This document shows positions 17,913 through 53,960 of a stretch of DNA of 64,000 nucleotides, in pieces. The notes beneath the pieces were generated by a model, which was given only the letters and a program-made list of their open reading frames with translations, was not told the DNA's origin and searched no databases. Position 1 is the stretch's first letter. Each line of letters starts with the position of its first letter. The position numbers were made by a program, and so were the translations under genes. Where the stretch lies: the NCBI RefSeq assembly GCF_014200395.1, contig NZ_JACHBS010000001.1:2232001-2296000 (forward strand), given 5' to 3'. The DNA comes from Microcella frigidaquae. GTDB taxonomy: Bacteria; Actinomycetota; Actinomycetes; Actinomycetales; Microbacteriaceae.

Positions 17913-18279
17913 GGCCCTAACGCTAGTGCGCCGTCGTGCGCACTCCACGGCCTGCCGAGCCGGAGTGCGCGTGTCGCGCGCGACGTGACTGAGTCGGGAC
18001 CGCAGGCCGCAAGCTTCGGTGCCACGGTTGACCCCGATCGGTCCTGAATGGGACTGCGGCGTGCGCTCGACGGCGATTCGGGACCGATCGGTGCGCTCGA
18101 CGGCGTCGATCGGTCACTCGTTGCGGACCGTCCCGCGAACGTGCGCAACGAGTGACCGATGGATGGCCAGAGGCGCGGCGTCACTCGCTGTCGCCGCCGT
18201 CCGGCGAGTCGGCCCTGCTGAGAGGGCACCGTTGCGCCCCGGCGCGAGGCCGTCAGGCGGCGCGAGTAGCGTTGACGCC
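17913..18279. repeat. repeat-rich spacer between divergent rsmD and recG
   Basis: No credible gene is seen in these 367 bases. It contains CGTGCGCACTCC (17935-17946) pairing with GGAGTGCGCGTG (17962-17973, two G-U), CGATCGGTCC pairing with GGACCGATCG near 18034-18090, a 15-nt direct repeat GTGCGCTCGACGGCG at 18061-18075 and 18091-18105, and a perfect 17-bp inverted repeat ATCGGTCACTCGTTGCG (18109-18125) with its complement at 18144-18160. Both flanking genes point away from it, so these stems are not their terminators. Confidence 0.75.
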
Positions 18280-37669: not shown

Positions 37670-37735
37670 GCGTGGCCTCCCTCTGATCGGCGTTGCTGCG
37701 AGTCTTGCACGCGCGTATCGGCATTGTGTCTGAGT

Positions 37736-37796
37736 CCCTTCCAGAACTGCGGATCAGAACGAACCTTCTTCATCTGCATCCGCAGATCTGGAAGGG
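37736..37796. repeat. 19-bp inverted repeat between divergent genes
   Basis: CCCTTCCAGAACTGCGGAT (37736-37754) pairs with ATCCGCAGATCTGGAAGGG (37778-37796) with one mismatch and a 23-nt loop. Divergent genes flank it, so it is not an ordinary terminator. The stretch 37670-37929 contains no credible gene otherwise and is richer in A/T than its surroundings. Confidence 0.75.
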
Positions 37797-37929
37797 GCGG
37801 TCGGGGTTTGCCCTTGGGACGACCGCTCGGCCTTCCACGTCCCCTCCGCACCCTTCGCTCGCTCGTCTGGTCGGTACCGTCAGCCGTCATCGGGGCGCTT
37901 CGGGGGGTCGCTGCCCTCAGGCTCGACGG

Positions 37930-38442
37930 ATGCTCCGACGCCCGATCGACCCCGCTCTCCACCCCGAGGTGCCCGGGCCGGGGAGGCCGGCTCCGCCGGG
38001 CTACGAGTTCGCGGGGTTTCGGCGGTTCGAGCTCGTGCTGCGGCAGCTCGGCGGCATCGCGTCACGGCGGGAGCTGCTCGCGGCGACCGACGGCGACGAG
38101 ACGAGCTTCTGGTTCGCCCTGCACTATGGCTACCTCGACCGCGTCCGCACCGGCTGGTACGCCGCGGCGACGGTTCCCCCTGACGCGCGCGCTGCGTGGG
38201 CTGCCGGGGGCCCGCTCGCGTGCGTCAGCGCCCTCGTGCACCATGGCGTGCTCGACCCCGCTGACCACCGGATCGACGGCACACTGCACATCGCCCTCGG
38301 GCGGGGCGGCCATCGCTTCGTGACCGATCGCCCCGTCGTGGCGCACTGGGGCGACGAGGATCGCGCTTCGGGAACGCGGATCGCCGTCTCGCTCGAGACA
38401 GCGCTCCGGCAGGCGAGGTGGTGCGCTTCAGCTCACCAGTGA
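37930..38442 (+). pseudogene. truncated AbiEi-like / DUF559-type protein
   Basis: A 170-residue frame. Residues 25-75 (RRFELVLRQLGGIASRRELLAA, split here by the usual AbiEi winged-helix layout) resemble the AbiEi antitoxin N-terminal domain found in actinobacterial proteins of roughly 280-320 residues that end in a Vsr/DUF559 nuclease-like domain. Here the protein stops at ARWCASAHQ, before any such domain, and the stop overlaps the 3' end of the convergent HAD gene by 10 bp. It is therefore probably a remnant. The start at ATG 37930 is tentative; longer frames have no support. Confidence 0.5.
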
Positions 38443-50210: not shown

Positions 50211-53200
50211 GTGCATTTGAAGAGCCTGACCATCAAGGGCTTCAAGTCGTTCGCGCAGCCGACCACCTTCCAGTTCGAGCCCGGCGTCACCTGCATCGTC
50301 GGCCCCAACGGCTCGGGCAAGTCGAACGTCGTCGACGCCCTCGCCTGGGTCATGGGCGAGCAGGGGGCCAAGACCCTGCGCGGCGGCAAGATGGAGGACG
50401 TCATCTTCGCCGGCACCGCCACGCGCGGTCCGCTCGGCCGCGCCGAGGTGCAGCTGACGATCGACAACGCCGACGGCGCCCTGCCCATCGAGTACACCGA
50501 GGTGACGATCTCGCGCACGCTCTTCCGCAACGGCGGCAGCGAGTACGCGATCAACGGCACGGCGTGCCGCCTGCTCGACGTGCAGGAGCTGCTGAGCGAC
50601 TCCGGTCTCGGCCGCGAGATGCACGTGATCGTCGGGCAGGGTCAGCTCGATGCGGTGCTGCACGCGAGCCCGGAGGATCGTCGCGGGTTCATCGAGGAGG
50701 CCGCGGGCATCCTGAAGCACCGTCGTCGCAAGGAGAAGACGGTGCGCAAGCTGGAGGCCATGCAGGCGAACCTGACGCGCCTCAGCGACTTGGCCGGCGA
50801 GATCCGGCGGCAGCTGACCCCGCTCGGTCGGCAGGCGGAGATCGCCCGCGAAGCCCAGACCATCGCCGCGATCGTGCGGGATGCCCGCGCACGGCTCCTC
50901 GCCGACGACGTGGTCGCCCTGCGAACCGCCCTGGCCGACCACGCCCGTAGCGAGAGCGAGCGCACGAGCGAGCGCATCGTCGTGCAGAGCCAGCTCGACC
51001 AGACCCGCCTGCGCATCCAGCGCATCGAATCGCAGCAGGTCGGCGATGCGGTCGACGGCGCCCGTCGGGTCGCCTTCGACCTCGAGCAGGTGCAGGAGCG
51101 CGTGCGCAGCCTCACCAGCCTCACCCAGCAGAAGCTGACCCTGCTCAGCCAGCAGGCCGAACTGCCGGGCATGACGACGACGATCACGCAGGCGCAGGTC
51201 GATGAGGCGCGGGCCGAGGCCGTCGCGCTCCGCGAGGGCGTGGCCGCCGCCGAGCAGCTGGTCGGCGAGGTCGCCGCCCGCACCGCGACCGCGCGCGCCG
51301 CACTCGACGCTCTCGACGAGGAGATCGCCGCCCAGAGCGCCCTCGTCTCGCAGCACGACCTGCAACTGGCCGCACTGGCCAGCCGCGTCGATGTCGCCCG
51401 GTCGACCCTCGACGCCGCGCGCGGCGAGCAGCTGCGGCAGCAGAACGCGCTCGAGGCCGCGCTCGCCCGCCAGGAGGCGACGCGGGCCGACCTCGCTGCC
51501 CTTCCAGCACTCGACGACGGCACGGGCGACGATGCCACGCTCGCCCTCGACGCGGCGCTCGCCGACGCCGATGCCCGGGTGGCCGAGCTGACCGCGCGCA
51601 TCGACACCGAGCGCGAAGCGCTGCACGCCCTCGAGCGCGAGCGCGACGCCCTCGCCGCCCGCGTCAGCGCGCTCTCGCAGGCGGTCGACGCCGGCGACGG
51701 CGCCTCCGAACTCGTGGGCTCGCGCGGTATCCGCGGTCTGGTCAGCGATCACCTGCAGGTGCGCGCCGGCTTCGAGGCCGCCATCGCCGCCGCTCTCGGC
51801 ACCCTTGTGGATGCGGCGCTCGCCGACGACCTCGACGCGGGCCTCGCTGCCCTCGAGCGCGCGCACGCCGCCGAGGCCGGGCGCGTCGACGTGGTGCTGG
51901 CGCAGATCGGCGGGGGAGCATCCGGCACGCTCTCGGCGGTCGGCGGGCTCACCGCAGCGACCGACGTCGTGACCGCGCCCGACGGCGTGCTCGCCCTGCT
52001 CGCCCGCACGTTCATCGCCGAGGACCTCGCTGCCGCCCGCGCGGCCTGGCCCGCCGTCGCCGCCCTGCCGGAGGCCGACACGGTCAGCGTCGTCACGCGC
52101 GCGGGCGATGTGCTGACCCGCTCGGTGCTGCGCGGCGGCTCGGGAGCCGGCCGCAGCCGCCTCGAGCTCACGGCCGAGCGCGACGCCGCCTCTGCCGCGC
52201 TGACCGAGGTGGCGACCGGCATCGAGCGCGCCCGCGGCGCGCTCGACGACACCCGCGCGGCCCTCGCCATCGCGAAGCAGCAGGCGGTCGACGCTCTCGC
52301 CGCCGTTCGTGATCAGGATGCCCAGCGCGCCGCCCGCAGCGAGCAGGTCTCGCGCGCGCGGGCGCAGGCCGAGGCCGCGGAGGCCGAAGCCGCCCGGCTC
52401 GCGACCGCACTGGACGCCGCCCGCGAGGCCGTGCGCGACGCCGAGCAGGGCGTCGAGCGCGCTCAGGCCGAGCACGAGGAGTTCGCCGCCCGGCCTCGGC
52501 CGATGCTCGACGCGAGCCAGCGCGACGCGCTCGTCGCCGAGCTGGAGGCGGCCCGCGCCGTCGAGCTCGAGCGCCGCATCGAGCTGGAGACCGCGCGCGA
52601 GCGCGTGCGCGCGGCCGTCGACGCCGCCGAGCAGCTCGACAAGCGCCGCATCGCCGAGAAGGCGGCGGCCGAGGAGGCCGCCCGCCGCGCCGTGCTGCGA
52701 CAGCGCCAGGTGGAGCGTGCCATGGCTGTCGCCGCCGCGTTGCCCGCCGTGCAGGAGGCCATCGACCGCTCGGTCGCCGAGGCGCGGGTGGCACTCGCCC
52801 AGCGCGAGAGCGAGCGCGCCGCCCAGAACGACGAGCTGCTCGAGCTGCGCCGCACCGAGAGCGCGCTGCGCGAGCGCCTGTCGGCGATCACCGAGGGCGT
52901 GCACGGCCTCGAGCTGCAGATCTACGAGAAGAAGCTGCACCTCTCGCAGCTGCTCGAGCGCGCGGGTGACGAGCTCGGGCTCGTCGAGGAGGTGCTGGTC
53001 GCCGAGTACGGCCCGCAGGTGCCCGTGCCCGACGACGAGGCCCTGACCTCGGCCGCCCAGGCCCTCGCCGACGCCGTGGCCGCGGAGGCGGCATCCCGCG
53101 TCAACCCTGACCCGGATGCACCGCTCTTCGACCCGACCTCCGACGAGGAGGCGGCACGGGTCGCGGAGATCGTGGCGCAGGCGGCCGTGCATCCGTTCGC

Positions 53201-53960
53201 AACTCAGGCTGAGGGTGCAGAAACGGGTCTCGACGGCGCACGTTCCGGCGTTCAGCCTGAGTTGCGAACAGATTCCACCGGCAAGCCGTTCGATCGCGCC
53301 GAGCAGGAGGCCCGGCTCGCGCGCGCCGAGCGGAAGCTCGCGCAGCTCGGCCGCGTCAACCCGCTCGCGCTCGAGGAGTTCGCGGCGCTCGAGCAGCGCC
53401 ACAAGTTCCTCACCGAGCAGCTGACCGACCTCGCGAACACCCGTCGCGACCTGTTGACGATCATCGACGAGGTCGACAGCACGATGCAGACGATCTTCGC
53501 GGCCGCGTTCGCCGACACCCAGGCCGCCTTCGACCAGGTGTTCCCGATCCTCTTCCCGGGCGGCTCGGGCAGCCTGACGCTGACCGACCCCGACAACATG
53601 CTCACGACGGGCATCGAGGTCACGGTGAAGCCCGCCGGCAAGAAGATCGAGCGGCTCAGCCTGCTCTCGGGCGGTGAGCGGTCGCTCGCGGCCGTGGCGC
53701 TGCTCATCGCCATCTTCAAGGCCCGGCCGAGCCCGTTCTACATCATGGACGAGGTCGAGGCGGCCCTCGACGACGCCAACCTCGGCCGTCTGCTGACGAT
53801 CTTCCGCGATCTGCGGCAGAGCTCGCAGCTGATCATCATCACGCACCAGAAGCGCACCATGGAGATCGCCGACGCCCTCTACGGCGTGAGCATGCGGCAG
53901 GACGGCGTGAGCGCCGTCGTCGGCCAGCGCGTGCAGACGCCGGACGAGCGTGCCAGCTAG
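50211..53960 (+). CDS. smc: chromosome segregation ATPase SMC
   Basis: A 1249-residue SMC, the core of the condensin-like complex with ScpA and ScpB. Walker A GPNGSGKS is at residues 31-38, the hinge lies around residues 490-660 (LVGSRGIRGLVSDHL), the signature LSGGERS is near 1151, and Walker B YIMDEVEAALDD near 1180. Long coiled coils join them. A 75-nt palindromic element in frame adds residues 995-1020 before the C-terminal ATPase lobe (separate entry). GTG at 50211 follows GGGAGAGGGGGAG. The stop overlaps the convergent pncB stop. Confidence 0.95.
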   Translation: MHLKSLTIKGFKSFAQPTTFQFEPGVTCIVGPNGSGKSNVVDALAWVMGEQGAKTLRGGKMEDVIFAGTATRGPLGRAEVQLTIDNADGALPIEYTEVTISRTLFRNGGSEYAINGTACRLLDVQELLSDSGLGREMHVIVGQGQLDAVLHASPEDRRGFIEEAAGILKHRRRKEKTVRKLEAMQANLTRLSDLAGEIRRQLTPLGRQAEIAREAQTIAAIVRDARARLLADDVVALRTALADHARSESERTSERIVVQSQLDQTRLRIQRIESQQVGDAVDGARRVAFDLEQVQERVRSLTSLTQQKLTLLSQQAELPGMTTTITQAQVDEARAEAVALREGVAAAEQLVGEVAARTATARAALDALDEEIAAQSALVSQHDLQLAALASRVDVARSTLDAARGEQLRQQNALEAALARQEATRADLAALPALDDGTGDDATLALDAALADADARVAELTARIDTEREALHALERERDALAARVSALSQAVDAGDGASELVGSRGIRGLVSDHLQVRAGFEAAIAAALGTLVDAALADDLDAGLAALERAHAAEAGRVDVVLAQIGGGASGTLSAVGGLTAATDVVTAPDGVLALLARTFIAEDLAAARAAWPAVAALPEADTVSVVTRAGDVLTRSVLRGGSGAGRSRLELTAERDAASAALTEVATGIERARGALDDTRAALAIAKQQAVDALAAVRDQDAQRAARSEQVSRARAQAEAAEAEAARLATALDAAREAVRDAEQGVERAQAEHEEFAARPRPMLDASQRDALVAELEAARAVELERRIELETARERVRAAVDAAEQLDKRRIAEKAAAEEAARRAVLRQRQVERAMAVAAALPAVQEAIDRSVAEARVALAQRESERAAQNDELLELRRTESALRERLSAITEGVHGLELQIYEKKLHLSQLLERAGDELGLVEEVLVAEYGPQVPVPDDEALTSAAQALADAVAAEAASRVNPDPDAPLFDPTSDEEAARVAEIVAQAAVHPFATQAEGAETGLDGARSGVQPELRTDSTGKPFDRAEQEARLARAERKLAQLGRVNPLALEEFAALEQRHKFLTEQLTDLANTRRDLLTIIDEVDSTMQTIFAAAFADTQAAFDQVFPILFPGGSGSLTLTDPDNMLTTGIEVTVKPAGKKIERLSLLSGGERSLAAVALLIAIFKARPSPFYIMDEVEAALDDANLGRLLTIFRDLRQSSQLIIITHQKRTMEIADALYGVSMRQDGVSAVVGQRVQTPDERAS
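53195..53269. repeat. in-frame palindromic element inside smc
   Basis: Perfect 18-nt arms GTTCGCAACTCAGGCTGA (53195-53212) and its complement (53252-53269) enclose 39 nt. The total of 75 nt is a multiple of three and is translated without a stop as SMC residues 995-1020 (PFATQAEGAETG... QPELRT). A small GTGC/GCAC stem lies inside the loop. Confidence 0.85.

What the first reader, a model, noticed from the sequence alone, without database searches (positions are those of the whole stretch)
53195..53269. A palindromic element inserted in frame within smc
Perfect 18-nt arms enclose 39 nt, the element is exactly 25 codons long, and it adds residues 995-1020 to SMC just before the C-terminal ATPase lobe. 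A protein-coding palindromic repeat recalls the Rickettsia palindromic elements, which also insert in frame. It would be a natural domestication or mobility event in an essential gene.
Basis: partly seen in the sequence, partly recalled or inferred. Interest (0 to 1): 0.8.

Follow-up and report, generated by a model that had tools for sequence, protein, structure and literature searches.

The report
Nuclease-linked mobile palindrome inside smc
A 75-letter palindrome inside an essential chromosome-folding gene belongs to a family of small repeats that sit on both sides of a DNA-cutting enzyme gene and are scattered over the genome, which suggests a previously unlinked enzyme spreads them.

Summary
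In detail: 53195-53269 is a perfect 18+39+18 nt inverted repeat, read through in frame inside smc. It is the only 18-bp inverted repeat in the window; none of 16 bp or more arose in 20 simulations. The genome carries eight more two-armed copies. In 23 congeneric smc genes the same linker holds this type or a variant (11), an unrelated palindrome, type B (5), or neither (7); G000 (type A) and G170 (type B) are sisters.

The main finding is the partner. In 77 loci of one nuclease family (AbiEi_4 + REase_MTES_1575/DUF559), palindromes lie beside 47, against 0 of 63 windows farther out and 5 of 52 other genes. Different nuclease lineages carry different palindromes, and scattered copies tend to go with the lineage. 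The nuclease domain is closest to the homing endonuclease I-Bth0305I.

I read this as a REP/RAYT-like arrangement with an unrelated enzyme. That the enzyme binds, cuts and spreads the palindromes is inferred, not shown. Of 79 elements examined, 7 lie in a real coding frame, all smc, so this is not an RPE-style coding family.

The parts
53195..53212 (+). left arm of the palindrome, GTTCGCAACTCAGGCTGA (type A arm)
   Evidence: repeated across the genome
53213..53251 (+). 39-nt loop, variable between copies; TTCG to CGAA is 73 nt in 7 of 7 smc copies picked up and 74 in 31 of 39 intergenic type A copies of the genus (73 in the other 8)
53252..53269 (+). right arm, TCAGCCTGAGTTGCGAAC
50211..53960 (+). 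smc, 1249 aa, carrying the element in frame at residues 995-1020
   Evidence: relatives
53001..53279 (+). hypervariable 93-aa linker of SMC (AEYGP to the residue before GKPFDR) that receives the palindromes
   Evidence: low-confidence coil at residues 994-1027

Best explanation
The smc palindrome is one copy of a mobile, non-autonomous palindromic element (type A, about 76 bp: two 17-18 bp arms around about 40 bp). Its partner is a two-domain protein, AbiEi-like winged helix plus an EDxHD/Vsr-type nuclease (REase_MTES_1575/DUF559), whose gene lies between two type A palindromes at 2.01 Mb. Proposed mechanism: the AbiEi-like part of a dimer binds the two arms, the nuclease part cuts or nicks at or beside the dyad, and break repair or strand transfer copies the palindrome into other sites. 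Insertions survive where they do little harm: between genes and, exceptionally, in the SMC linker, where only lengths in phase are kept. SHOWN: dispersed copies, filled and empty sites, two unrelated palindrome types at one smc site, the nuclease gene flanked by matching palindromes, different palindromes for different lineages, conserved acidic/His nuclease residues and the predicted fold. INFERRED: binding, cutting, the copying route, dimerisation, and that the linker is disordered.
Against: No cutting, binding or movement was observed. No target-site duplication is clear at the menB site. G169 and G170 keep type A copies without an A-lineage gene among the matches, and G152 and G158 have a variant in smc without one. 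G171 and G153, whose A-lineage genes are broken, have no copies beyond those next to the gene. Two of the four B-lineage genes contain a stop. B and C lineages were labelled by their flanking arms, so those tests only ask whether such genomes have further copies. 30 of 77 genus loci show no palindrome at the threshold; phylum-wide only 5 of 26 against 0 of 23 (p=0.05). Far windows are mostly coding; the fairer gene-flank control is 5 of 52, not zero, and 1 of 24 random windows also passed. Type A clustering near its own gene is only a trend (p 0.10-0.28). Arm-protein agreement among close orthologues is partly plain descent of the flanks. G160's smc holds the A2 variant although its gene is flanked by A arms.
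Confidence: 0.7

Rival explanations
1. The palindromes are operators: the AbiEi-like nuclease is a regulator, the flanking copies autoregulate it and dispersed copies form a regulon.
For: AbiEi antitoxin fold at residues 1-187; base conservation is dyad-symmetric, while pairing over the whole element is little above shuffled.
Against: Copies behave as inserted blocks with empty sites; one lies in the smc coding frame; the downstream flank also carries one; type C copies crowd round their gene.
Confidence: 0.13
2. Another enzyme (a RAYT/IS200-type or other transposase) moves the palindromes and the nuclease gene is a passenger caught between two copies.
For: No enzyme activity shown; palindromes persist without an A-lineage gene in G169 and G170; RAYT genes were not searched for.
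Against: A passenger would hardly be flanked by a different matching palindrome in each lineage across a family.
Confidence: 0.13
3. The smc palindrome is a functional hairpin of the smc mRNA or gene, kept by selection and unrelated to mobility.
For: Among three smc copies the arms are nearly frozen (86-100% identity) while the loop is at 46-64% and the flanks at 79-93%.
Against: The same arms occur between genes; 7 of 23 congeners lack it and 5 carry an unrelated palindrome.
Confidence: 0.03
4. Rickettsia-type palindromic element family (RPE): protein-coding palindromes spread through many genes.
For: In-frame insertion of a palindromic unit in a gene for a chromosome protein; Di Nocera 2013 (PMC3733652, abstract and passages seen) reports intragenic REPs, many in replication and repair genes.
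Against: Only smc among 79 elements examined is in a real coding frame; RPE sequences were not compared.
Confidence: 0.01

Closest known systems
REP/REPIN palindromes with RAYT (TnpA-REP) genes, 'REPtrons'
   Same: Short palindromes scattered over a genome; a gene flanked by the same palindromes; repeats commoner where the gene is present (PMC8049555, passages seen); enzyme groups co-evolved with their palindromes (PMC8266576, abstract seen).
   Different: Enzyme has a predicted EDxHD/Vsr-type nuclease fold with an AbiEi-like domain, not HuH; palindromes are about 60-110 bp with arms of about 12-22 bp, type A without a GTAG end tag; type C copies crowd round the gene.
CGTC-tagged REPs (PMC3733652, abstract and passages seen)
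   Same: Palindromes, some inside genes, for which that paper found no dedicated transposase.
   Different: Small units with 8-9 bp stems and a CGTC end tag; no sequence comparison was made here.
EDxHD homing endonucleases (I-Bth0305I) and Vsr
   Different: Extra AbiEi-like domain; flanking palindromes and dispersed copies; whether an intron is near was not examined.
AbiEi antitoxins
   Different: Fused to a nuclease; an AbiEii partner was not looked for.
Rickettsia palindromic elements
   Same: Palindrome inserted in frame in a gene.
   Different: Here, in what was examined, confined to one gene.

Membership tests
REP/RAYT (REPtron) | Enzyme of the HuH/Y1 transposase family | tested here: not met
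   P0001 matches AbiEi_4, REase_MTES_1575 and DUF559 only at E up to 1; predicted fold is Vsr/EDxHD
REP/RAYT (REPtron) | Gene flanked by copies of its own palindrome | tested here: met
REP/RAYT (REPtron) | GTAG tag at one end of a 20-40 bp palindrome | tested here: not met
   type A consensus and length
REP/RAYT (REPtron) | A RAYT gene in the genome | not tested
EDxHD homing endonucleases | Nuclease fold with conserved E, D, H, D residues | tested here: inconclusive
EDxHD homing endonucleases | Cleaves a long target and spreads its own gene by homing | not testable with these tools
   needs biochemistry
Classical MITE | Terminal repeats shared with a full-length transposon plus target-site duplication | tested here: inconclusive
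   arms occur mostly as about 75-bp pairs; no clear duplication at the menB site
Rickettsia palindromic elements | Inserted in frame in many different genes | tested here: not met
   7 of 79 elements in a real frame, all smc

The most novel reading that the evidence does not exclude
A categorically new class of mobile repeat system, widespread in Actinomycetota: AbiEi-EDxHD nucleases (now named 'DUF559 domain-containing' or 'very-short-patch-repair endonuclease') are palindrome-spreading enzymes, each lineage recognising its own long dyad, seeding tens to over a hundred copies near and far from its gene, and repeatedly invading the same SMC linker. It would give a function to a large group of unexplained DUF559 proteins.
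Probability: 0.5. Interest if true: 0.92.

Novelty: new variant of a known kind. Interest (0 to 1): 0.85.

Why it matters
If true, a common protein family now named only by domain (DUF559, 'very-short-patch-repair endonuclease', AbiEi antitoxin-domain protein) is the engine of a REP-like repeat system built on a homing-endonuclease fold. It would show that the partnership of a flanked gene with a palindrome population arose with an unrelated enzyme, and offer many lineage-specific enzyme-site pairs for testing recognition and copying. The smc case gives a natural series of filled, differently filled and empty sites in an essential gene.

Tried and rejected
Rfam: nothing credible at the element (best E 0.38). 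Folded-strand selection: over the whole element 76.0% of cells pair against 73.9% in shuffles (reached by 5 of 500) and the covariation score is reached by 13 of 500, while pairs with changes on both sides are no commoner than shuffled (146 of 500); slid controls pair only 27-37%. RNAalifold kept 10 pairs, none with a change on both sides. Read as dyad recognition rather than a conserved RNA fold, weakly. Target-site duplication: a 7-base repeat in G151 against G152 looked possible but the ends do not fit; not claimed. Three open frames spanning menB-upstream copies (L175, L364, L370) were rejected as frames that merely run on upstream of menB. Literature: no paper found linking DUF559 or MTES_1575 with palindromes (searches, listings; passages of PMC3710099, PMC12907096, PMC3943268, PMC4155686, PMC8049555; abstract and outline of PMC8266576; abstract, outline and passages of PMC3733652); the library lacks most subscription journals. 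NCBIfam gave no match for P0001, PADLOC only weak ones. SMC model: mean pLDDT 60.4, pTM 0.25, from 19 close sequences, so poor as a whole; its lowest stretch, model residues 197-230 (SMC 994-1027), is coil and covers the element. Foldseek was never run as a job of its own; only the VIA-align second look was.

Selections and drops. One search used 77 of the 87 rows (left out: 3 second pieces of a gene already taken, 7 short partial matches); far windows could be cut for 63; 28 loci of other genera, of many more rows. One search dropped 3 of 29 loci at contig ends. One search was given only the 31 intergenic type A copies of 74 nt (8 of 73 nt left out). One search picked elements by a loose pattern from fetched loci only; it also caught some related longer palindromes, and missed several smc copies with weaker arms and the type B ones in smc. 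In one search the copies flanking each gene were left out, positions were typed, some neighbouring hits were merged by eye, and single contigs were taken as circles; its gene-copy test for type A still counted flanking arms and is replaced. Type labels of smc (A, A2, A3, B, neither) and lineage labels of genes are mine, by arms and eye. Tests on 26 related genomes ignore shared descent. That the smc type B stretch belongs to a nuclease palindrome was looked for on purpose but not noted beforehand.

Full report
What is there. smc (50211-53960) contains a perfect inverted repeat, arms 53195-53212 and 53252-53269, gap 39, 75 nt in all, read in frame as residues 995-1020. It is the only inverted repeat with 18-bp arms in the 64-kb window, and 20 simulated windows gave none of 16 bp or more. 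The window lies in a 2.55-Mb genome, G000. The closest named SMC relatives are Microbacteriaceae such as Salinibacterium; close relatives of the nuclease below are named Microcella, so the genus is probably Microcella.

A dispersed family. One arm with up to 2 mismatches occurs 18 times in G000, 0 times reversed. These form nine two-armed elements, smc included, and one half element. Of the intergenic type A copies of the genus caught, 31 of 39 measure 74 nt from TTCG to CGAA and 8 measure 73; 7 of 7 smc copies measure 73. In 150 genomes of the family, 13 (G000 included) have an arm at up to 1 mismatch; some are single chance-looking matches, others carry their own variant in pairs. The 31 copies of 74 nt show both arms conserved plus an inner TGTG...CACA pair of blocks.

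smc as a repeatedly invaded site. In 26 congeneric genomes smc with this region could be read in 23 (G160 from a fragment): 11 carry type A or a variant of it, 5 carry a different stretch (GCACGAACGTCTGCAGAA..., type B, in G170 with two changes in the core), 7 carry neither. On a tree of smc without the linker these states need at least 6 changes, and G000 (A) and G170 (B) are sisters with full support. The linker varies in length and sequence across Microbacteriaceae, and in an otherwise poor SMC model residues 994-1027 are the least confident coil. Among three type A smc copies the first arm is identical and the second 86-95% identical, the loop 46-64%, the neighbouring smc 79-93%. Either the arms are held by selection or copying, or different copies went in.

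Empty site elsewhere. Upstream of menB, of 25 genomes aligned, 8 have type A, 14 have no palindrome, and 3 hold others: an A2 palindrome in G162, another type in G151 (its close relative G152 has none) and a partial one in G158. So several palindrome types visit the same place.

The partner gene. Two type A copies about 1.06 kb apart enclose one gene, P0001, 300 aa; the downstream copy overlaps its stop codon. Pfam: REase_MTES_1575 2.7e-10, AbiEi_4 7.6e-8, DUF559 5.9e-6. All 26 congeners have homologues, 87 rows in all. Flanks of the best 30 loci showed that different lineages have different palindromes, though five loci had none at that threshold. Type B, first seen only as the odd stretch in smc of G164-G166, G169 and G170, is the palindrome next to a nuclease gene in G165, G166, G169 and G170 (two of these genes contain a stop).

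Controls. Best inverted-repeat score 13 or more within 330 bp on either side: 47 of 77 nuclease loci, 0 of 63 windows over 1 kb away. Both sides 11 or more: 29 of 77 against 0 of 63; a shared 13-mer on both sides: 47 of 77 against 2 of 63. Other genera of the family: 17 of 28 against 0 of 27, and 1 of 24 random G000 windows. Flanks of other genes: 5 of 52, both sides 1 of 52, shared 13-mer 5 of 52. Phylum: 5 of 26 against 0 of 23, shared 13-mers 9 of 26 against 0 of 23. In four class-level relatives of one genus (g91) a palindrome arm seen beside nuclease genes of three of them occurs 12, 51, 6 and 167 times at up to 1 mismatch, reversed control 0, and 0 times in four other genomes, one of which had one control match.

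Copies tend to follow their gene. With copies next to the gene left out: type A, at least 4 arms in 9 of 14 genomes with an A-lineage gene, intact or broken, against 2 of 12 without (p=0.02; rank test p=0.004); type B, at least two exact arms in 4 of 4 against 2 of 22, the two being drafts 71 and 81% complete; type C, 10 of 11 against 3 of 15, those three 71-75% complete. B and C lineages were named by their flanking arms. A palindrome of matching type in smc goes with a matching-lineage gene, intact or broken, in 13 of 16 genomes, against 2 of 7 without one in smc (p=0.03). Type C copies crowd within 100 kb of their gene in G000, G155 and G156 and not near the A gene; for type A this is only a trend. 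Palindrome and protein similarity go together (Mantel r 0.74), with the caveat that close orthologues also share flanks by descent.

How it may work. A dimer could hold both arms of the dyad through its AbiEi-like parts while the nuclease parts cut or nick nearby; I-Bth0305I is described as a dimer on nearly 60 bp (PMC3943268, passages). Copying by break repair or strand transfer would seed new sites, preferentially near the gene for type C. These steps are inference. The arrangement resembles REPINs and RAYTs, whose genes are single-copy and vertically inherited (PMC8049555, passages); here too the A gene was seen near glpK and/or trpS in the four loci examined for it.

Membership. It works like a REPtron but is not one: the enzyme is not HuH and the palindromes lack the GTAG tag. 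It is not an RPE-type coding family: among 79 elements, 7 lie in a real frame, all smc. Intragenic REPs in replication and repair genes are known (PMC3733652), so an in-frame smc copy alone is not unprecedented. What is new is the enzyme link, for which no paper was found in the searches listed under Tried and rejected.

Noticed in passing
window 37693-38442: ORF whose latter half matches the AbiEi and middle parts of the nuclease family but stops before the nuclease domain (row 2270062-2270436): probably a relic.
   Followed up: partly
window 18109-18160: Perfect inverted repeat of about 17 bp with a gap near 18; perhaps a terminator or another palindrome type.
   Followed up: no
G322 contig 1, e.g. 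900626/902316, 4357733/4359415, 196832/198514, 632911/634604, 1225059/1226741: Single palindrome arms about 1.7 kb apart in five places, as if one insertion element sits inside these palindromes.
   Followed up: no
L328 (G000 near 1.10 Mb): Inverted repeat with arms over 30 bp containing GACGGAGA, which also occurs in palindromes beside nuclease genes in L312 and L316.
   Followed up: no
L380, L382, L385 (menB upstream): Different palindrome types at the same intergenic spot in different species: a shared hotspot.
   Followed up: partly
G000 20-82 kb (L321 holds the gene): Nine of the 14 type C palindromes of G000 not next to the gene lie within about 33 kb of it.
   Followed up: yes
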